Source: Mytilisepta virgata
Taxonomy: Eukaryota; Mollusca; Bivalvia; Mytilida; Mytilidae
Assembly (NCBI GenBank): GCA_028015205.1
Contig: CM051517.1
Coordinates: 45,023,135 to 45,087,134, forward strand
Length of the DNA: 64,000 bases
Reading direction: 5' to 3'
Within the stretch, counting starts at the first letter, position 1, and each line of letters begins with the position of its first letter. A program made the translations under genes and the position numbers. This document shows positions 2,193 to 54,300 of this stretch, in pieces. Below the pieces are notes generated by a model that worked only from the letters and a program-made list of their open reading frames with translations, was not told where the DNA came from and made no database searches.

Positions 2193-4885
2193 AATTAGCG
2201 ATGGGTGTTATTTTATATTATATTGTTTTAGTTAAAAAGAAAATGTCAGTCCATGCTTTTCATCTAAGAATCAATATTTTCATTTATTTATGTTTCAGAA
2301 ATACAATATTCATAAAAATTAAAAAATAATAAAAGAAAATATGATGACTTCAAAGTTATGATACCATAACATAAGTGCTACCTGCCTGTTATGTAAAATG
2401 CCAGAATTTGTACATTTAGTTATTACCTTGTCTATTATGTCATCAAGTGAACAAAATTGTCATTAAAATGAAATTATCACGATAGCAATAAACAATTAAC
2501 AACACTTCAATCTTTAAAGACGTCCCTAACGAATAATGATTGTCTCAATCTATAGATACATTACTATGAACATTTCTTTTTACACCATATGTTACAATAA
2601 AACATGTAAATGAAAAAAAATAACCACAATTTCAATTTCTGCAAAAAGGAAAATACAATAATTATGTTACAAAATGCTACTAAATAGAAAACACGATGTA
2701 TTCGTATATATACTTTTGAAAACCATTTGATGTATTGCCATAATGATTATACATGTTTTATGTCTGTGAACCACATTTTGAAATTTAATAAAATAGAATG
2801 AATGTTATAATTAGAATCGAAAATAATGCCCGTAACAACTTGGGAGTATTCATTTCTTCTATTCTGGTTCAATCCAGAGCACCTCCAGAAGTGATGTACA
2901 ATCGAACGGAAACGGATTACTACTGGAGATCCCGTGTCTTCTGGAGTGCGTCGGAAGACCTCCAGAATTGTGAAAAAATCTTTTTCAAAGGCTTTCCATG
3001 AACTTTTATTTTATTATTAGAGTTTAGGATTTTCTTTGCAAAAATGGAGGTATCTCTAATAGAAATGCTTATGGAAGAGGGTGATGAGGGTGACAACGAC
3101 TGTTGAAGTTCCTGCCACTCTGAAAGTCACTTGATCTATCAATGGAAAATCAAGGAAATGGTGAGCTATCAAAAAGGGCATAAAGCGACCTAAATGTCCA
3201 AAATACACAAGCCGAAAATAACCCAAATACAAATGGTAACAAAAAAAAAAATCAAAGTAAAAAGTGAAGATTACCCAACGTTTCGGCCAATATCGCCTTG
3301 ATCACGAGCATAAAAAATGAAAATTTAAAAAGGAATTGACTCTTGGAAACCCAGAGCAAGACTGTAAATAACGTTACGCTTGATTGGTCAAAAGGTATGT
3401 ACATTTGTCGACGGCGCGATTTGATTGGTTTAAAAGCATTGGAAGTTGAGACCTTCAACAGGTTATCTCACACTGAAAATGGCCTTTTACAAAGAAGAAA
3501 AGCGTAAAGTCATAGTTGACTCAGTGTATGTCGTCTGCTACGAAAGGTATTACTTTTTCTGTTTTGATTCTAAGCGAGCATTGGTTGATTGTTTCGGCCT
3601 TCACATTTTCGGCATTGGGACCTGCTACTGAGACATAAATCGTTGTAATGTACACATATATAGTGAATCAAAATTAGTATCAGAGTTAGATATATATAAA
3701 AGTTTGCCTCAGCAGTACTGTTCGATGCCAAAATTTTAAGTGCCCTCAATCCAGTCTTTGATTTCATACGCTGATTGCAAAACAAAAATATTGATCTTTT
3801 ATCGAGTGGTTTAGTCAACAAATATGCCAAATTTCTCTCAGGCATTTTTTAATTTAAACTTTTTGGCTTTTCCCACTACAAGTTAGAAATAAATTTTAGA
3901 AATGCACATCAATTTTCCTTTTCAGATACAACTCTATGGATTCATCCCAAATCAGTCTTTGTCGATCAACAACAGGACAAAATGTTATGGAATTATGTTC
4001 AATTCTCATGTTATTTTGAAATTTGGGTCATTGTCAAAAGCAATTAGTATTCTAATGACCACTCTGTTAATATCAACTCGAGCTAATGACCCTCGTAGAT
4101 TTCATAAGAAATACGTAGTATTGAGTATTAGATATTTCCTTGTAGGATTGCTGATGTCATAGCCAAACAAGTGCATAATTAATCAATTAAATTGACACTT
4201 TAGGGAAAGAACCGATGGAAGTATGGGTTATACTAGATAACATAGGACGTACATTTTGTAAGTGGGAGTTTATATGTTCTCCTATATTTCATAACAAGCT
4301 TAACAAGAACCATTATGGAATTAGTTGTTAACGGAACAACCATTTGATTTTTTTCGGACGGAAGGAAGAAAATTTTAAAAAAATAAGACGACTGAATATC
4401 ACCTACAAGTAGAATTAAATGATATAATTTTCTGAGAAAAAAATTGGGCGCGCCTAAGCTCTGAAATAAAAAAAAATCGGCTGCGATTTCATTTGGTATT
4501 TTAACTATTTCAAAAATGAAATTACCCGACAAATACATGTATTTAAAGGTCATCTATACCAATTGTTTGTGCACATACATGTATATAACTAAACACCATT
4601 TTTTGACAGAAGGAAAATTTTAAAACAAAATAATGTTCATGTAATTACATTGTAGTACCAGTATTTCGATGTTATGTGCTATCAATGAAAAGAAAAGAGC
4701 TTAACTTATATAGTTAATAATCTTAAGCCAAATCACGTTCAATTACTAACACATCAATGAAAAAGTATTGTTATTTCATGCAATATACATGTATGTGTAT
4801 CAAGTTTCCAAAATTGAGTATGCATTTGGTTTTGTCTACAAAGGTTTCCACTGCAACAGTTTTCGTTATAAATATATTCGAACTT
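2193..4885. other. intergenic with minor repeat traces
   Basis: No supported gene. An A11 run at about 3241-3251 precedes CCAACGTTTCGGCCAATATCGCC, a word reminiscent of sequence near Penelope-type retroelement ends. AACAACCATTTGATTT near 4333 resembles one terminus of the TTA-duplicating MITE at 36090, but no partner end was found. An ATG in good context at 3479, with a possible donor at 3547, is listed among the rejected items. Confidence 0.4.
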
Positions 4886-7549: not shown

Positions 7550-9293
7550 TTGTCATTAGTTCTAAGATATAATTTCTGAGTAGACATCGAATATGCATTT
7601 CATTGATACAAGAATATATTATAATACAAATTGTTAGCTTTATACACATTAACATCGAAATGTAGTTCAAATGAATCAAACGTTTGCCCGAAGCCGACAT
7701 TATTGAAAACCAATACAATATCAAAAAGTTTAAAGAACAGCAGAAATGACATCACTAAAAAAACATGTTTAGGACAGTATTAATTAATTTAATACACTTG
7801 GGAGATACTCTTCCAATAAACAGTCAGCGGTTGTTTTCAAGCATGAATTTAGTGAGAATATTGAAATATTAAAACCAAAGAAGGTGAAATTTGTAAAACG
7901 TTTTCAGTAAATAAATAAAAGGTTAATCTGGTGTTCCTATTATTGTAGGTGTGATAAGGTATCAATATATTTTTGCTGTAATCGTTAAAACAGTAAACTC
8001 ACACAAAGTGATAGCTCTGTTGTCTTCTCAAATTTGTTACCGCACATTAACACGATTAAGACCAATTAGTTTTCCACAAACAGAAGATGGTGAAAGCATG
8101 GTCAAATAACAAAATATCTCGATGAATACTTTTACATACAGTGATATTTCTGTTTTTTTTTTGTGTTGATTTTTGTAGGTTCTGTTCATGATTGACAAGG
8201 TTATTCTTTCAGCGTGGCATGTACATGTATGACGGAAATCATCTAGGAGCTTTAAGAAAAAGAAGAGCAACTACAAAATCCTTAAATATACACGTGGCAA
8301 ATGTTCAACTACTGGAACAGCACCTTTTCTGAATACACATATTCATGTGTGTAGTACATGAAGAAAGCTGTTGTACCCATTGATGGTTCAAGACAGTTCC
8401 CGTACGAGTACTAGTTTTTAAAATGTACTTTTATACTAAATTTCAATTGGAGCTATTACAAATGTGTAATTGAAGGTGACAGAACCAATTACACAAAATA
8501 TATAATTTTAAAAAACAATCAACAAATGCTGTCTTTTTTAATTTGTAAGTTTTCTTAAAACCCATGGAAATTGTAATTTCATAAGAAAAGTATATTAAGG
8601 TTTAATTACCCTCATGACATATTTCTGCAAACTGGGCATATTTTCTAAAATAACAAAAAACAAAAACAAAAAACAAAAAAACAATTCATATAAATTTAAA
8701 TTAAAAACGACTGGTTTCCAACATTACGGAATGGCGATCAAATATAATCATAACATGATACAGAAACATTATCAATATTCGTAACTGATTACAAACAATG
8801 TTTTTTTTTCTCTGTGTAATCTACTATTTTTACTGTTGTCTCGAAGCGACAATCGTCCAAAAACGTTGATATCACAAGAACGTAGAGGCGTAGCAATGTT
8901 ATTTATGATCGGTTACGAATATTATCACTACCATGTTCTGATTCTAAGGAATTTTGAATTCATACATTGTACGTGTAGAAACTTTTTACAAGGCAAATAC
9001 ATGTATGAGCTGAAATATACAAATATTATCAGGTATTTTGCTATTATAAAATAATAGATACAATGATTGAATATACGAAAACCACTGCTTAACAAATCTG
9101 TGTGTCAATTTGCACACAAAACCGGTATGTATAAAAGAAAAGAAAGAAACCCCAAAGAACAAAATATTATAGATAAAAGATTTAATTACCATTATTTTTT
9201 CTTGAACATTGCAATGAAAGAAATACAATAGTATAGTAAGAAAGAAATACTGGAAAGAATTATCAATTAAAGGTCAAATTTAAGTTAGAACAG
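7550..9293. other. intergenic, nothing recognised
   Basis: AT-rich sequence without a supported gene. Open frames at 8037-8270 and 8836-9228 are short, overlap on opposite strands and look random. Homopolymer-rich stretch (A/C tracts) near 8650-8690. Confidence 0.45.
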
Positions 9294-16222: not shown

Positions 16223-17112
16223 TTCGTCCCGTGGAAGAACAAAGATCGTGATATTAATTGAGAATGTACAATGGAACAACGTGCCGTGGAAGAACAAATA
16301 TTGTGATATTAATGAAGACCAAAGATTACATGTATTAAATTAATTGAGGGTGTTCAATGGTCCATCGTCCCGTGGAACAATATAGATTGTAATATTAATT
16401 GAGAATGTGCAATCGTACAAAGTGCCGTGGAAGAACAAAGATCGTGATATTAATTGAGGATGAACAATGATACATTGTCTATAACGTTCTGTGGAGGAAC
16501 AAAGATTGTGATATTAATTGAGATGAACAATGATACATTGTCTATAACGTTCCGTGGAAGAACAAAGATTGTGATATTAATTGAGGATGAACAATGATAC
16601 ATTGTCTATAACGTTCTGTGGAAGAACAAAGATTGTGATATTAATGAGGATGTACAATGGTACAACGTTCCGTTGAGGAACAAAGACTGTGATATTCATT
16701 GAGGATGTACAATGGCTCAACGTCCCGTGAAAGAACAAAGATTGGGATATTATTTGACAATGTACAATCGTACAACGTGCCGTGGAAGAACAAAGATTGT
16801 GATATATTAATTGAGGATGTACAATGGTACAATGTCCCGTGGAAGAACAGAGATTGAGATATTAATTGAGGATGAACAACGGTACAACGTTCCGTGGAAG
16901 AACAATGATCGTGATAATAATTGAGGATGTACAATGCTACAACGTCCCGTGAAAATACAAAGATTGTGATATTAACAGAGGATGTACAATGGTACGTGTA
17001 CAACATAGCGTGGAAGAACAAAGATTGTGAAATTAATTGAGGATGTACAATGGTACAACGTTCCGTGGAAAAACTAAAAGTGTGAGAACAAAAGATCGTG
17101 ATATTAATTAAG
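16223..17112 (+). repeat. 55-bp minisatellite, about 15 units
   Basis: Units start with GTGGAAGAACAAAGAT (or close variants) at 16231, 16286, 16372, 16427, 16491, 16553, 16618, 16672, 16727, 16782, 16839, 16893, 16949, 17010 and 17064. The common unit is 54-57 bp and includes GTGATATTAATTGAGGATGT followed by ACAATGGTACAACGT.CC. Three consecutive units from 16427 to 16618 are 62-65 bp because of extra CATTGTCTATAACG sequence. The minus-strand 126-residue frame here is just a translation of the repeat (FHGTLYHCTSSINIS periodicity) and is not a gene. Confidence 0.95.
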
Positions 17113-20129: not shown

Positions 20130-20753
20130 TCATGTTGTATTTCTAGTCTGCATTCTGCTTTCTCTCATATCAACTGTTATATGTTTCCCGTATCTATCCA
20201 CTCGAATTTTAGGATTCATCTTTTCTTTTATCGAGTTGAAAAAGTCTGTATCTTCAAGGTTCCCATCAGCAACAAAGTTCGATTTTTCTTGGCATTTTTC
20301 TGTCAATACTTTATGTAGAATTCTATGAACCCTGGCAGGATCTACTTGTCTTATTTTACGTTCAATTTCCTTTTCAAAGTTTCTTCTGTCATATCCTCCG
20401 TGATATATTCTAATTTCTTGTGCAAATCGCCTTGCAGATTTCGGCGACTGAACCCATGGTCGTTTATATCCTCTTTTTTGCAGAGTATCAAACTTTTTTG
20501 CTCTGTAATCTTCGGCTAGAACTTGTTCATATCCTCTTAGTCTCTTTTGAGAATTTTCGGACTTTGTAAACATACGATTAAGCATGTTATTTTTAAATTT
20601 TTCCTCTTTTTCAATGATTTTTTGTACTTTCTGAAGTCTAGCTTCCTCTTCTAAATTTACACGGTTAGCTCTTGCACGGGTCTTTGCAGTGATATCATCC
20701 AATCTTGAAAATGTCACTTTCATATCATAGAAAGGCTTCTTTAGATCTTTCAT
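20130..20753 (-). CDS. basic coiled-coil protein of unknown function, 207 aa
   Basis: This is the longest and most protein-like frame in the window. The sequence is rich in Lys, Arg and Glu. Residues about 20-75 (TAKTRARANRVNLEEEARLQ, then KVQKIIEKEEKFKNNMLNRM) are predicted-looking coiled coil. Residues about 75-150 are strongly basic with aromatic residues (YEQVLAEDYRAKKFDTLQKR, GYKRPW, RIYHGGYDRRNFEKEI), and the C-terminus is polar (KMNPKIRVDRYGKHITVDMR). There is no signal peptide or membrane segment, so a cytoplasmic, nuclear or axonemal protein is likely. The ATG is fixed by an in-frame TAA 6 nt upstream. I recognise no family; a lineage-restricted gene is possible. The ORF is free of stops although the neighbouring repeats are decayed, which argues for selection. 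Confidence 0.7.
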   Translation of the reverse strand: MKDLKKPFYDMKVTFSRLDDITAKTRARANRVNLEEEARLQKVQKIIEKEEKFKNNMLNRMFTKSENSQKRLRGYEQVLAEDYRAKKFDTLQKRGYKRPWVQSPKSARRFAQEIRIYHGGYDRRNFEKEIERKIRQVDPARVHRILHKVLTEKCQEKSNFVADGNLEDTDFFNSIKEKMNPKIRVDRYGKHITVDMRESRMQTRNTT

Positions 20754-20823
20754 ATTTTATTTGTCATAAATGAATTCCCATAAAATTGTGCGTCGCGAAC
20801 ATATTGCGTACTTCTGTGTGTGT
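20754..20823 (-). other. 5' untranslated part of the start-codon exon, with splice acceptor
   Basis: Read on the minus strand, TTCTTGCTTTTTGTTTTAG ends at 20824 and is a textbook polypyrimidine tract plus AG acceptor. About 70 nt later the ATG of the 207-residue protein begins. This implies an upstream non-coding exon beyond 20840 and an intron in the leader, into which the LINE remnant at 20880-21752 would fall. The upstream exon was not located. Confidence 0.5.
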
Positions 20824-24439: not shown

Positions 24440-25560
24440 AGATTCTTCACACGAATTGAATAAGAGTAAAATAAGAGTGATGCAACATTTACATCACGTA
24501 TTAACTAGAAATCGGTGCCATCAGAAACGATGTCAATCCCCGCACTGCAAAAGTAAAAAAACAATTAACAGTGAAAAATTAGCAATTTCACAATTTGAGT
24601 CTGAAAATTGGAACCCTGAATCAAATTTAAATAAATCCTTATTACACACCTACACTTAGTGCAGAACAATATTATACACAAATGAAACCACTGAAACAAA
24701 AAATGAATGAGTATTTCCAGAGACAAAGCAAAATTAGCAATTTCACCATTTTCGGTCCCAAAATTTGATTCCTTAATAGATTTTCAAAGTTAAAAACATT
24801 TTTTGCATATCTCCAGAAAATAAAGAACAATATTATACAAATATTTTTTTAAAATCTAAATGAAAAATGAAAGAGGAGTTTAAGGCACAAACTTAAATTC
24901 ACTATTTCCGAAATACAACTCCTGTGGGCCTCAAGTTGTCAAAATTAAAAATCTAAAACCTTATTGCGCATCTACATATAGTATGTGGCAACATGGTATA
25001 GAAATTAAATGGATGACGTGAAAAATAAATGAGGAGTTTAGGTCACAAGCTTAAATTCCAATTTTTGAAATTCGACCCCTGTGGATCCCAATTTTTAAAA
25101 GTAAAAATTTCAAACCGTTATTGCGCATCTACATACAGTATGTGACACTACTGTATAGAAATTAAGGCATAAAACGAAAAATGTATGAGGAGTTTAGGTC
25201 ACAAGCATAAACTTTTCAATTTTGACCCATGTGGACCCAATTTTTAAAAATCAAAATTAGAAAACCTTATTGCGCATCTACATATACAGTAGTTGATAAT
25301 ACCGTATAGAAATTAAAAGCATAAAAAGAGAAATGAATGAGGAGTTTAGGTCACAAGCTTAAATTTCCAATTTTCGATATTCGACCCCTGTGGGCCCCTA
25401 TTTTTGAAAATCAAAATTCTAAAACCTTATTACGCATCTACATACAGTGTGTGACAATACTGTGTAGAAATAAAATGCATGAAGTTAAAAGTAAACGAGG
25501 AGTTCTGGAGACAAGATTATCTAACGGACGGACAGACGGACCGATTACAAATATCCCCGA
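24440..25560 (+). repeat. repeat family B: 156-bp tandem units with ACGGACGGACAGACGG tail
   Basis: About six units are marked by GAGGAGTTTAGGTCACAAGC or variants at 24713 (weak), 24873, 25031, 25187, 25339 and 25497, so the period is 152-160 bp. Each unit also has a GACCC.TGTGG.CCC block, CAAAATT.TAAAACCTTATT and GCGCATCTACATA. The last unit runs into a tail CTAACGGACGGACAGACGGA near 25520. The open frames inside are shadows. Confidence 0.85.
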
Positions 25561-29744: not shown

Positions 29745-30793
29745 AATCAACTCTCGACCATAGCTCCCCTGTTAGGTTCCAACTTCCTCTGTGGTTTCAA
29801 ACAAGAAAGTTCACAAGTGAATTTCCTCATATGGTCCTAAGTTTAAATGAAAATCTGCTGTAGTGGCTATCTTGATTAATATTTCATGTTATCAGACACA
29901 CGTCACACACAGGACCGTCTAAGACCATTGCTGATAACTTGAGTACAATTGGTTAAGAACCTTTGTTAAACTAAGTTTGACTGTTTTGAACCGTCCGGAT
30001 TATTGGGCATAATTCTGAAGAGGGCCATCTAAGGAATACTGCTGATATGCCTGCTTTCAATTGGCCAAGTGCTTTCAGACAACAAGATCTTTAAATAAAT
30101 TTTTCAATACGGTGCTATATTAAACAAAGTTTTGCTGTGGCAGCCATCTTGAAGGACAATCCAAGTCATTGGACACAATTCTGAAAGAGGACCATCCAAT
30201 TACCATTGTTGCCAAGTCTTGTTTCAGTTGGCAAAGTGCTTTCAGACAAGAAGATTTTTAAATGAATTTTTCAATACGGTGCTACATTAAACTAAGATCG
30301 GCTGTGCCGGCCATCTTGTATGACAATCCAAGTCATCGGACACAATTCTGAAAGACGGTCATCTAAGCACCATTGCTGCCCAAACTGTCTCCAATTGGCG
30401 AAGTGCTTTCAGATGAGAAGATTTTTAAATGAATTTCCTTATAAGGTCCTGCATGTATGTTAAATAGAAATCGGCTGTGGCGGCCATCTTGGTCATCGGA
30501 TACAATTCTGAAAGAGGACCAAAGACGAACCATTTCTGCCAAGTTTGGTTACATCTGGCCATTAAAATCCACAGAAGTAGATTTTAAAAAGTGAACCCTT
30601 TTTTCATACTTTTAGTAACAGAAGCCACGTTGATTGGAGGTTTGGGATGCCGGACACAATTTTGAAAGGGGCATACCAATGCCCAACCCACCAAAGTTTC
30701 AGAGGAGCAGATCTTTAAAGGAAAATTTACGACGACGTACGGCGGACGAAAAGTAGTGACAATAGTTCACATGGACCTTTGGTTCAGGTCAGA
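29745..30793 (-). repeat. family A-type repeat, copy 2, with 160-170-bp internal tandem units
   Basis: Blocks GGACACAATTCTGAAAGA (30010, 30177, 30343, 30503), AAGTGCTTTCAGA, AGATTTTTAAATGAATTT and GGCTGTGGCGGCCATCTTG recur about every 166 bp. The right end, GACGACGTACGGCGGACGAA then CAATAGTTCACATGGACCTT, is the reverse complement of the 5' end of family A (hairpin CC..GG flanked by AGCTCAC/GTGAGCT-type sequence). It is therefore an antisense member with an internally amplified body. Confidence 0.7.
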
Positions 30794-39754: not shown

Positions 39755-40310
39755 CCTTCTTGACTAGCAATATACTAGCATCGACTGTATATGGCGTATA
39801 CGTTTCTCAGCTTATCCGACATAAAACGACATGCGTGAGTTACCATGACTTTCGACAAAGAGGATTACTGCTGTCGCAAAAGCTGCTTAACGAGGGTTTT
39901 ATCAGGGATAAGTTGATGTCATCACTTAGGAAATTTTACAGTCGTCATCACAAATTGATTGATAGTTACATTGTTCCAATATCGTAGTTGATGTTGGAAC
40001 TGTTCCCACTGTCATAAAATTTCACGTACCTCCACCGGATTGACTTTGTTGAACTTCACGACGGGTGCCGTATACGGAGAAGGAACAGCTTACCTTTTCG
40101 GAATACCTGACTTCACCCCTTGTTTTTATGGGAGTTCGTGTTGTTCATTGTGTTTTATTTTTCAGTGTTTATTTGTTGTGCTTTTGGTTGTTTTGTCTCC
40201 CCTAGTGGATTGCGTTTTTTTATTTGCTTCTTAGGTATATTTGTCGTCGTTCTACAGTTCAGAGTTCCCTTCATTAACACTGTTTCACTTTTTTGGTATA
40301 TGCATTTTAG
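39755..40310 (+). mobile_element. retroelement fragment R3
   Basis: From 39762 the plus strand encodes SNILASTVYGVYVSQLIRHK, then LLLSQKLLNEGFIRDKLMSS and LRKFYSRHHKLIDSYIVPIS, ending in a stop at 39985-39987. This is the C-terminal end of the reverse-transcriptase-type family seen at five other places here, and this copy has the best preserved coding end. The 3' tail follows: GGAACAGCTTACCTTTTCGG, GGGAGTTCGTGTTGTTCATT, CTTAGGTATATTTGTCG. No upstream RT domain is attached. The frames at 40040-40317 belong to the tail, not to genes. Confidence 0.8.
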
Positions 40311-51725: not shown

Positions 51726-52243
51726 TATAAATAGGTCTCTTTCTTTTTCTAACAACTTAGTTGCATGAATTGATGAGACATTGTCGTTCAAAAGAACAGA
51801 TATAGTTCGTGCACAGCAACAATCGTTATATTTTTCGTATACTAGGTTCTACAATACCAGTGTTGATTCGCAATATATGCACATGTCGCACATTTATGGC
51901 TAATTATTTGTGTTCAAGACCTAAAATGTTGAAAACCAAAATAATAATCCAAACGTTTGAATCGCAAATTCAAAAAATGAGAAATGACTAGAAACGGTAA
52001 AACCAAAACCATCTAAGGACGGAGCTACATCGTAAATGTATGCACAATGTATAATTCTAAAATGAATTCGTAAGAACAAATACATTTTGTTAAAAAAAAA
52101 CTGAAATCATGAGTTGTTTTCAAAACATTTTATTTCAACATAGATAATACCAATATTTTCTGCGTTGTACATCTGAAAATATACATTGTACAATGTATAT
52201 ATTGTGTCTCGGCGGAGGTAATCAAGGCTCAAAGCATAAAGAG
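51726..52243. other. intergenic, nothing recognised
   Basis: AT-rich flank. It may contain more of the antisense retroelement tail R4, but similarity is too weak to place a boundary. Confidence 0.3.
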
Positions 52244-52473
52244 GACAAATATAGTCGTCAGACTTGTCTGACATGATTATTCATTGATTTGTTACAGAAA
52301 TTAACAGTATTTAGCAAAATTCAAAAATAATAGAAATACTAAGGGTTCATTCCTTGTATTGCACATGGTAGATCTCCTTAGCTGAAATTTGGCTCCCTAT
52401 TTCGGTATTTTTGGTTGAGTACTTCTTGTTTAATATAAGTTTGGTTTTTGGTCTTCCAAATGTTCCGGTTTTA

Positions 52474-52520
52474 ATGCTGCTGATGAGAGGTAACTCCTTG
52501 AAATGCGTCGTATACAGCAT
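52474..52520 (+). ncRNA. type I hammerhead ribozyme, copy 1
   Basis: All core parts are present in order. Stem I 5' strand ATGCTG (52474-52479). Conserved CTGATGA (52480-52486). Stem II 52487-52499, GAGG/CCUU with loop UAACU and a G-U closing pair. Conserved GAA (52500-52502). Stem III AUGC/GUAU (52503-52513) with loop GUC. Residue A52514 at the cleavage position. Stem I 3' strand CAGCAT (52515-52520), which pairs perfectly with ATGCTG. Predicted cleavage is between 52514 and 52515 (AUA). UUUA/UAAA can extend stem I beyond a small internal loop. Confidence 0.85.
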
Positions 52521-52850
52521 AGTATAAATTTACTATATCTAATATTAGTATCTTTGGATTGTTATTTTGAAACTCCTGGGGTGATGCCTCTGCTGGTGGA
52601 CCCTAGGTCCCCGAGGGTTTTCGCCAACCCAGTCGTCAGACTTTTCTGACATGATTATTCATTGATTTGTTACAGAAATTACCAGTATTTAGCAAAATTC
52701 AAAAATAATAGAAATACTAAGGGTTCTTTCCTTGTATTGCACATGGTAGATCTCCTTAGCTGAAATTTGGCTTCCTATTTCGGTATTTTGGTTGAGTACT
52801 TCTTGTTTAATATAAGTTTGGTTTTTGGTCTTCCAAATGTTTCGGTTTAA

Positions 52851-52897
52851 ATGCTGCTGATGAGAGGTAACTCCTTGAAATGCGTCGTATACAGCAT
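52851..52897 (+). ncRNA. type I hammerhead ribozyme, copy 2
   Basis: Same 47 nt as copy 1 without change: stem I ATGCTG 52851-52856, core CTGATGA 52857-52863, stem II 52864-52876, GAA 52877-52879, stem III 52880-52890, cleavage predicted after 52891, stem I CAGCAT 52892-52897. The distance to the copy 1 cleavage site is 377 nt, the predicted RNA monomer. Confidence 0.85.
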
Positions 52898-53228
52898 AGT
52901 ATAAATTTACTATATCTAATATTAGTATCGTTGGATTGTTATTTTGAAACTCCTGGGATGATGCCTCTGCTGGTGGACCCTAGGTCCCCGAGGGTTTTCG
53001 CCAACCCAGTCGTCAGACTTTTCTGACATGATTATTCATTGATTTGTTACAGAAATTACCAGTATTTAGCAAAATTAAAAAATAATAGAAATACTAAGGG
53101 TTCATTCCTTAAATTGCACATGGTAGATGTCCTTACCTGAAATTTGGCTTCCTATTTCGGTATTTTTGGTTTAGTACTTCTTGTTTAATATAAGTTTGGT
53201 TTTTGGTCTTCCAAATGTTTCGGTTTAA

Positions 53229-53275
53229 ATGCTGCTGATGAGAGGTAACTCCGTGAAATGCCTCGTATACAGCAT
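53229..53275 (+). ncRNA. type I hammerhead ribozyme, copy 3 (mutated)
   Basis: Stem I, the CTGATGA and GAA cores, stem III pairing and the cleavage residue are intact. Two changes are present. One stem II base (53253) is G instead of T, turning an A-U pair into A-G. The stem III loop reads CUC instead of GUC (53262), which leaves the stem untouched. This copy is probably weaker. Predicted cleavage after 53269, 378 nt from copy 2. Confidence 0.75.
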
Positions 53276-53705
53276 AGTATAAATTTACTATATCTAATAT
53301 TAGTATCTTTGGATTGTTATTTTTATATACCTAAGGAGCAACAAAAAACGTAATTAAGTAGACAGACAAACCCTGGTAGACAAATGAACAACCACAAGCT
53401 CAACAAATAAACACTAAAAAATAAAAAAAACAATGAATAACACGAACTTCTATAAAAACCAGGAGTGCTGAATCCAAAAGCTGAATCAGTTATGCAAAAT
53501 GTTGTAGAGTGCAAAGTAAAAAACGCTGAATGAGCAATCCTAAATGTCGTGGCTAAATCAGTAAGTCGTGAAATAAAGAAAAAGACTTAGAATCATCTAT
53601 GGGCATAGTAAAAGATGAGGTAAATAATACATATCCTGGAAACATTTTAACTGGACGAATCAGTCCCGATGCATATCCCCGCGCTACTTTTGAGTTTTTT
53701 TTAAT

Positions 53706-54170
53706 CCATACAACCAAAACTAATGCTGTTGTTATAGTGATTCCAAATATATATGGTTGCTAAGTAGAAATCACAAATAAAGTCTTTCAGGAAATTTACT
53801 AAATTTGGAATCACATATTTTGAAATTTAAATAATCTAGATTACTTTTAAAGCTAATAGGTTCCCAATAAATCTATATTTGTTAAGTAAAATTCCCTAAA
53901 TAATAATCTTAGACACTTTCAGGAAATTTATCAAAATTGGAATCATATTTTTGAAAACCATACTATCCAAACTACTGCTGTTGCTATAGTGATTTCAAAT
54001 ATATATATGGTTACTAAGTAGAAATCACAAATAAAGTAGTCTTTGAGTCTTTCAGGAAATTTACGAAAATTGGAATCACATATTGTTGAAATCCAAATGA
54101 TCCAGATAAGCCTTAAAGCTAATATGATAAAAAAAAATCTATAATTGCTAATTAAAATTCCAAAAATAAT
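53706..54170 (+). repeat. 252-bp tandem duplication
   Basis: CCATAC...CCAAACTA.TGCTGTTG.TATAGTGATT begins copies at 53706 and 53958. Both contain AAGTAGAAATCACAAATAAAG and TTTCAGGAAATTTAC.AAA.TTGGAATCA, and the last block recurs a third time in the middle at about 53918. It is a diverged tandem repeat, non-coding. Confidence 0.75.
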
Positions 54171-54300
54171 AGTCTGTCAAAGAGACAACAACCTGACCAA
54201 AGAGCAGTAAACAGCCCAAGGCTATAAATCGGTCTTCAACTCTGCGAGAAAATCCTGCACCCGAAGGCGGGCTTCAGCTGGGCCCTTGCATCTATTAACT
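54168..54300 (-). repeat. mussel retroelement-type 3' tail, antisense copy
   Basis: GTCAAAGAGACAACAACCTG, ACCAAAGAGCAGTAAACAGC, GGTCTTCAACTCTGCGAG and CACCCGAAGGCGGGCTTCAG are the reverse complement of 1690-1800, with closer agreement to the mussel repeat as I know it. It is a partial solo tail. Confidence 0.7.

What the first reader, a model, noticed from the sequence alone, without database searches (positions are those of the whole stretch)
52254..53324. Tandem array of self-cleaving type I hammerhead ribozymes (retrozyme-like element)
Seen: three 377-378-bp units each contain, in the correct order, stem I strands ATGCTG/CAGCAT, the invariant CTGATGA and GAA, a 4-bp stem II and a 4-bp stem III, with a valid NUH cleavage site (AUA). 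Established: animal and plant retrozymes are short non-coding tandem repeats with hammerheads that spread via small self-cleaved RNAs. Inference: transcripts of this array would self-process into 377-nt monomers that could circularise.
Basis: partly seen in the sequence, partly recalled or inferred. Interest (0 to 1): 0.92.

Follow-up and report, generated by a model that had tools for sequence, protein, structure and literature searches.

The report
Self-cutting RNA circle jumping gene
The repeat is a mussel-type mobile element that carries a hammerhead ribozyme, and its genome copies look as if small RNA circles had been reverse-copied round and round, with the ribozyme as the one part that stays unchanged from jump to jump.

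Summary
The array is real (52253-53323: 378, 377 and a partial 316 bp). So, most likely, is the hammerhead, although Rfam's model misses it and it is not the predicted lowest-energy fold. Two other repeat families of the same mytilid-like genome share its backbone and carry canonical hammerheads at the same place. A profile of one family finds two window units nearly end to end (E about 1e-12; a unit with its ribozyme masked 3.9e-10). Stems are rewritten between families with pairing kept (10 of 13 pairs compensatory).

Genome copies suggest how it moves. All 38 arrays with a readable 3' end stop at unit position 313-322, while 5' ends scatter. Units of one array share variants (1.4% vs 4.2% divergence). 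Of 78 distinct variants fixed in an array, none lies in the 47-nt ribozyme; the longest variant-free run matches it. This fits reverse transcription of single self-cleaved RNA circles from one start point.

Unit 3's stem II is broken. Cleavage, circles and helper element are untested. The kind (animal retrozyme, known in Mytilus) is published; the insertion footprint was not in what I read.

The parts
52253..53323 (+). Retrozyme array, 2.84 units (family A)
   Evidence: 41 array groups of the family in the same genome examined
52474..52520 (+). Type I hammerhead, unit 1; expected cut after 52514
52851..52897 (+). Type I hammerhead, unit 2; expected cut after 52891
53229..53275 (+). Hammerhead of unit 3 with a mismatch in stem II; probably weak or dead
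   Evidence: 18.5 bits; changes private to this unit
52572..52637 (+). G+C-rich domain (64%) that opens each unit just after the fixed 3' end; shared with family B and, in part, family C
   Evidence: nhmmer alignments from 52576 and of L078; G+C
52950..53014 (+). Second copy of that domain
   Evidence: nhmmer alignment from 52953
52257..52272 (+). Hairpin at unit 5-20; array 5' ends cluster at unit 1-22 (likely reverse-transcriptase stalling); the window array starts there
53310..53323 (+). Fixed 3' end of the insertion (unit 315), inferred start point of reverse transcription, 54 nt after the ribozyme cut site
   Evidence: 38 of 38 arrays end at unit 313-322
51848..52049 (-). Decayed copy of family B with a degenerate hammerhead at 51868-51913; an older neighbour, not part of the array
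   Evidence: nhmmer E 5.2e-38; model R2 18.3 bits

Best explanation
This is an animal (non-LTR) retrozyme: a non-coding, non-autonomous retroelement. Transcripts through an array are cut once per unit by the type I hammerhead (inferred), giving about 377-nt RNAs that are closed into circles (inferred; a host tRNA ligase is the published candidate). A reverse transcriptase of another element starts at one fixed point on the circle, about 54 nt downstream of the cut-and-ligation site, goes round a variable number of times, and the cDNA is inserted with a defined 3' end and a ragged 5' end. The insertion pattern is shown here; the enzymatic steps are inferred from it. Because only RNAs that cut themselves become circles, every transposing lineage must carry an intact ribozyme, while inserted copies decay freely; the window's unit 3 is such a decayed copy.
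For: Hammerhead: nearly full-length collinear homology of two window units to a family with canonical hammerheads (E 1.3e-12 and 2.2e-12; HHR-masked unit 3.9e-10; best match in 20 Markov control windows E 0.44); 94.7% of cells paired, 10 of 13 pairs with compensatory change, 0/500 shuffles as high for four of five measures (26/500 for the fifth); RNAalifold finds the same fold unprompted; leave-A-out model hits 3 of 3 units with filters off. Movement by RNA: 3' ends 38 of 38 at unit 313-322, 5' starts spread over the unit. Circle: units of one array share variants, 1.38% divergence within vs 4.16% between arrays, lowest of 500 label shuffles 3.81%. Ribozyme needed: 0 of 78 distinct array-fixed variants in the 47 ribozyme sites (p 3.1e-5), non-fixed variants near neutral there (58 vs 494 elsewhere, p 0.09), Fisher 5.4e-4; longest variant-free run lies between sites 219 and 269, ribozyme 221-267; 22 of 20000 simulations give a run as long.
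Against: Rfam RF00163 does not recognise it. The hammerhead fold is -7.1 against -12.6 kcal/mol for the MFE; one representative of each sister family also loses to another fold, by less (-7.5 vs -10.3; -5.7 vs -9.2). Stem II ends in G.U where 17 of 20 sister rows have G-C. No clear target-site duplications. The circular monomer is only mildly more stable than shuffles (z -1.65 and -1.54). Some arrays, the window's among them, show no variant shared by all units. No RNA data. The arrays are the best-scoring ones (40 of 777 candidates scored), not a random sample; an independent replicate could not be run.
Confidence: 0.86

Rival explanations
1. The template is a linear multimeric transcript, not a circle: a reverse transcriptase copies read-through RNA of an existing array from a fixed 3' end.
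For: Would also give a fixed 3' end and truncated 5' ends. The lack of 5' ends within 3 nt of the cut site (0 of 38, about 0.7 expected by chance) does not decide.
Against: An active ribozyme would cut such RNA, yet an array of 10.2 units exists (L043). The absence of array-fixed ribozyme changes is unexplained if cutting is not needed. Several arrays are copies of one monomer, though a homogeneous parent array could mimic that.
Confidence: 0.1
2. The motif descends from a hammerhead but has lost catalysis; the 47 nt are conserved for another role, such as recognition by the reverse transcriptase.
For: No Rfam hit, G.U at the base of stem II, unfavourable predicted fold.
Against: Core letters and an NUH site are kept, pairing is kept while stem letters change between families, and arrays made from one monomer need a way to make circles.
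Confidence: 0.07
3. Ordinary satellite-like DNA spread by unequal exchange or insertion of circular DNA, with the hammerhead as passenger.
For: Tandem arrangement; similarity within arrays could come from local DNA exchange.
Against: DNA circles or exchange give no reason for 38 of 38 like 3' ends with scattered 5' ends, nor for a constraint that matches the ribozyme borders.
Confidence: 0.03

Closest known systems
Metazoan non-LTR retrozymes, above all that of the mussel Mytilus galloprovincialis (PMC7229834)
   Same: Short tandem non-coding units (published mussel repeats about 350-390 bp; here 377), low G+C, type I hammerhead, dimers to multimers; host probably a mussel relative.
   Different: Hammerhead with rewritten stems, G.U at the base of stem II and no Rfam hit. 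No published mussel retrozyme sequence was at hand, so descent from it is not tested; the likeness of family C to Mytilus repeats is recalled.
Penelope-like elements and Terminons with minimal type I hammerheads (as described in PMC7229834 and passages of PMC7761336)
   Same: Type I hammerheads in tandem; proposed helper of animal retrozymes.
   Different: No reverse-transcriptase ORF here: longest open stretch in the array 96 aa.
Plant LTR retrozymes (PMC4918200, seen only in a search listing; described in passages of PMC7761336)
   Same: Non-coding element with hammerheads and an RNA circle as intermediate.
   Different: Type I not type III; no LTR arrangement or 4-bp TSD seen; smaller unit.
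Newt, schistosome and cave-cricket satellite hammerheads (passages of PMC6155905; PMC7229834)
   Different: Not compared by sequence here.

Membership tests
Metazoan non-LTR retrozyme | Short (about 150-450 bp) tandem repeats, dimers to multimers | tested here: met
   377-bp units; 42 array rows of 0.7 to 10.2 units
Metazoan non-LTR retrozyme | Type I hammerhead in the unit | tested here: met
   119 of 163 unit copies carry the identical 47-mer; unit 3 of the window is broken
Metazoan non-LTR retrozyme | Non-coding, low G+C | tested here: met
   Longest open stretch 96 aa, G+C 0.347
Metazoan non-LTR retrozyme | No LTR, PBS or PPT | not tested
   No terminal repeat was evident at the ends printed, but PBS and PPT were not searched for
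Metazoan non-LTR retrozyme | Dispersed by retrotransposition | tested here: met
   Arrays on contigs C1-C11, C13 and C14; fixed 3' ends in 38 of 38 and scattered 5' ends
Metazoan non-LTR retrozyme | Target-site duplications, when present, longer than 4 bp | tested here: inconclusive
   36 arrays: mean longest shared word in the flanks 3.39 vs 3.30 (sd 0.13) at 12 bases, 4.53 vs 4.12 (0.15) at 20, 5.14 vs 4.83 (0.16) at 30, 5.86 vs 5.63 (0.19) at 45 for re-paired flanks
Metazoan non-LTR retrozyme | Self-cleavage; abundant linear and circular monomer RNA | not testable with these tools
   No RNA data or bench work
Metazoan non-LTR retrozyme | Circular RNA predicted to be highly self-paired | tested here: inconclusive
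   Circular MFE z -1.65 (unit 1), -1.54 (unit 2), antisense -2.46
Rfam RF00163 Hammerhead_1 | Score at or above the gathering cut-off (34 bits) | tested here: not met
   No hit in the window nor at E<=10 over 52000-53600; six hits elsewhere in the genome
Penelope-like element | Own reverse-transcriptase ORF | tested here: not met
   No open stretch over 96 aa in the array. A genome search for GIY-YIG proteins did not complete

The most novel reading that the evidence does not exclude
The genome holds a direct record of rolling-circle reverse transcription of ribozyme-made RNA circles: each array is a many-fold copy of one circle, begun at one fixed point next to a domain shared between families, and mobilisation filters every lineage for an intact hammerhead, so that array-fixed variants outline the ribozyme almost to the nucleotide without any experiment.
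Probability: 0.68. Interest if true: 0.75.

Novelty: new member of a known kind. Interest (0 to 1): 0.62.

Why it matters
That animal retrozymes move by reverse transcription of RNA circles has been a model; a 2020 review says that their repeats show no conserved motif that would point to the helper element (PMC7761336, passage). Here the insertions themselves show a fixed start point, a domain beside it that is shared between families, ragged 5' ends that favour a hairpin, arrays made of one monomer, and constraint confined to the ribozyme. That gives handles on which RNA position is primed, which reverse transcriptase recognises it, and whether cleavage is needed for each jump. It also shows that a hammerhead with rewritten stems can escape the Rfam model, so surveys that rest on that model may undercount.

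Tried and rejected
Rfam search of the window and array: no hammerhead; the three weak hits there (CyaR, CRISPR-DR26, mir-460) are below cut-off and read as chance. Thermodynamic fold alone: does not give the hammerhead; judged uninformative because one representative of each sister family also fails it. Viral-contig scan for the core letters: 0. Target-site duplications: no clear signal. First idea that the Rfam-positive hammerhead beside the L002 array was part of the same element: dropped, since it is a copy of family B and the window's B copy lies at another distance and strand. A Pol III reading of the TTTT at the 3' end: not tested, not claimed. Helper element (GIY-YIG search) and an independent replicate of the array test with another query: not completed.

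Weak points of the counts: BLAST pieces under 60 bits were dropped and array rows under 150 bp (for instance the short pieces at L064 and L067); L039's separate monomer was pooled with its array. Refined ends put 36 of 38 3' ends at 311-322; the other two (L061, L067) have a small deletion just upstream of the same end. The 5'-end clustering on the hairpin is 9 of 38, 9 of 2000 simulations after scanning: moderate. The absence of 5' ends at the cut site is weak, as about 0.7 would be expected by chance. Array-fixed variants are not all independent: 15 of 78 occur in more than one array. Family B 3' ends are my reading of 12 copies that were picked by similarity to that very region.

Full report
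What is there. The window carries a tandem array at 52253-53323: units of 378 and 377 bp and a partial third of 316 bp, 97% alike. The window lies in a 1.03-Gb genome (G000, contig C10). The one named relative of a window protein is from Mytilus galloprovincialis, 77% identical, so the host is probably a mytilid mussel. The array is non-coding (longest open stretch 96 aa; G+C 0.347).

Is the hammerhead real? Units 1 and 2 match a strict type I descriptor; unit 3 has a mismatch in stem II. In 9.6 Mb of second-order Markov sequence the strict descriptor finds nothing and a relaxed one finds 1, so chance in this window is unlikely, though a gigabase would hold relaxed chance matches. Rfam's Hammerhead_1 does not hit, and the fold lies 5.5 kcal/mol above the predicted minimum.

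Sister families. RF00163 finds six hammerheads elsewhere in the genome. L001, L002, L003, L004 and L006 are of one family (B; 3508 first-look candidates, 40 scored, mostly 85-89% identical). L005 and L076-L080 represent another, old family (C; 17 candidate places including the query's own). Aligned copies of B show the order: G+C-rich domain, a middle with ACTAAGG and CCTTAG, hammerhead, short tail. A profile of 15 B copies finds the array at 52576-52884 (E 1.3e-12), 52953-53260 (2.2e-12) and, in part, 52311-52507 (2.5e-4), collinear and hammerhead on hammerhead, and finds a unit with the hammerhead masked at 3.9e-10; it also finds L078 (1.4e-16), L005 (8.6e-10), L079 (4.4e-8), L077 (1.5e-4) and L076 (2.7e-4), but not L080 (3.4). 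In 20 Markov windows the best match has E 0.44. So backbone homology does not rest on the motif.

Covariation. In 23 hammerheads (3 from the window, 16 B, 4 C; L002, which has an insertion, L077, nearly the same as L076, and the degenerate L080 were left out) 94.7% of cells pair, 10 of 13 pairs change on both sides with pairing kept, and the covariation score is 0.450 against 0.225 (sd 0.020) in shuffles. Four of five measures are reached by 0/500 shuffles, the fifth (further pair types) by 26/500; slid structures reach at most 0.101. RNAalifold, given no structure, returns the hammerhead with 14 pairs, 11 of them compensatory. A model made without A scores units 1-3 at 24.5, 24.5 and 18.5 bits with filters off; with default filters over the whole window it ranks units 1 and 2 second and third (14 bits, E 0.044), behind the decayed B copy, and does not list unit 3. 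One representative of B and one of C also lose to other folds in the energy model, so the fold energy is no argument against A alone.

How it spreads. A search with unit 2 gave 777 candidates, of which the best 40 were scored. I fetched 38 of these regions plus the L002 array and used the window itself: 40 loci. In 42 array rows, 38 have a readable 3' end and all 38 lie at unit 313-322; 38 have a readable 5' end and these run from 1 to 351 (refined, 36 of 38 3' ends at 311-322, the other two behind small deletions). Family B looks alike: of 12 fetched copies 10 end at the same short tail and 2 run on into a next unit (picked by similarity to that region). A fixed 3' end with ragged 5' ends is the mark of target-primed reverse transcription (established for LINEs; recalled). 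The end is not the ribozyme cut: it lies 54 nt after it, just before the conserved domain. None of 38 5' ends lies within 3 nt of the cut site (about 0.7 expected by chance). 5' ends favour the hairpin at unit 1-22 (9 of 38; 9 of 2000 simulations after scanning), as if the enzyme stalls there; the window array starts there too. Clear target-site duplications were not found.

One circle per array. Divergence between units is 1.38% within and 4.16% between arrays; 500 label shuffles give at least 3.81% (142 units, 40 loci). In 22 arrays with at least three units, 76 variants are shared by all units of their array, 68 by some and 168 are private; L038, L049 and L065 have shared ones only, while L063b and the window array have none shared by all. 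The window array has 13 private changes and is probably an older insertion. Local DNA exchange could add to this pattern.

Selection on the ribozyme. Variants fixed in an array were probably in the template; variants in single units mostly arose later. Of 78 distinct array-fixed variants none lies in the 47 ribozyme sites (binomial 3.1e-5), while non-fixed ones fall there almost as expected (58 against 494 elsewhere; p 0.09); Fisher 5.4e-4; with at least 3 or 4 units per array the Fisher values are 0.0034 and 0.0044. 63 of the 78 occur in one array only. The longest stretch free of array-fixed variants runs between sites 219 and 269, the ribozyme being 221-267; the next longest is 17; 22 of 20000 random placements give one as long. 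39 of 41 arrays hold at least one consensus ribozyme; of the other two, L050 differs in most units only by a base in an A run at the edge, and both units of L071 are changed. I read this as selection through the circle: RNAs that cannot cut do not become circles and do not transpose.

Place among known things. Animal retrozymes with these traits, including a mussel one of about 350-390 bp, are published, with cleavage and circles shown (PMC7229834, parts 1-4 of 6, the main text, read). A review gives the circle-copying model and says that no conserved motif points to the helper (PMC7761336, passages). In those texts I saw no analysis of fixed 3' ends, single-circle arrays or selection on the ribozyme; the listings of the searches showed none by title, and supplements could not be read. 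So the element is a new member of a known kind; the footprint of its life cycle is what may be new. The conserved domain resembles one that I recall from mollusc SINEs; one search did not confirm it.

Noticed in passing
window 51848-52049 (-), 3581-3685 (+), 7683-7739 (-): Decayed pieces of the family B retrozyme (E 5.2e-38, 9.4e-10, 4.8e-5); the first keeps a recognisable degenerate hammerhead at 51868-51913.
   Followed up: partly
genome G000, loci L006 and L081-L092: Family B: 3508 first-look candidates of a dispersed retrozyme family with canonical hammerheads, most fetched copies single or truncated, two running on in tandem.
   Followed up: partly
window 16339-17085, 24858-25504, 30055-30436, 53784-54175: Other tandem arrays with periods near 55, 158, 167 and 132 bp; no match to hammerhead model R1 at E<=10 in them.
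   Followed up: no
window 20130-20756 (-): Conserved 208-aa open frame, 73-79% identical to six database proteins, one named from Mytilus galloprovincialis, without a Pfam domain at E<=0.001.
   Followed up: partly
window 53325-53467 and 40114-40240: The 3' flank of the array matches another stretch of the window in reverse (75%, E 7e-23): the insertion sits beside or in an older repeat.
   Followed up: no
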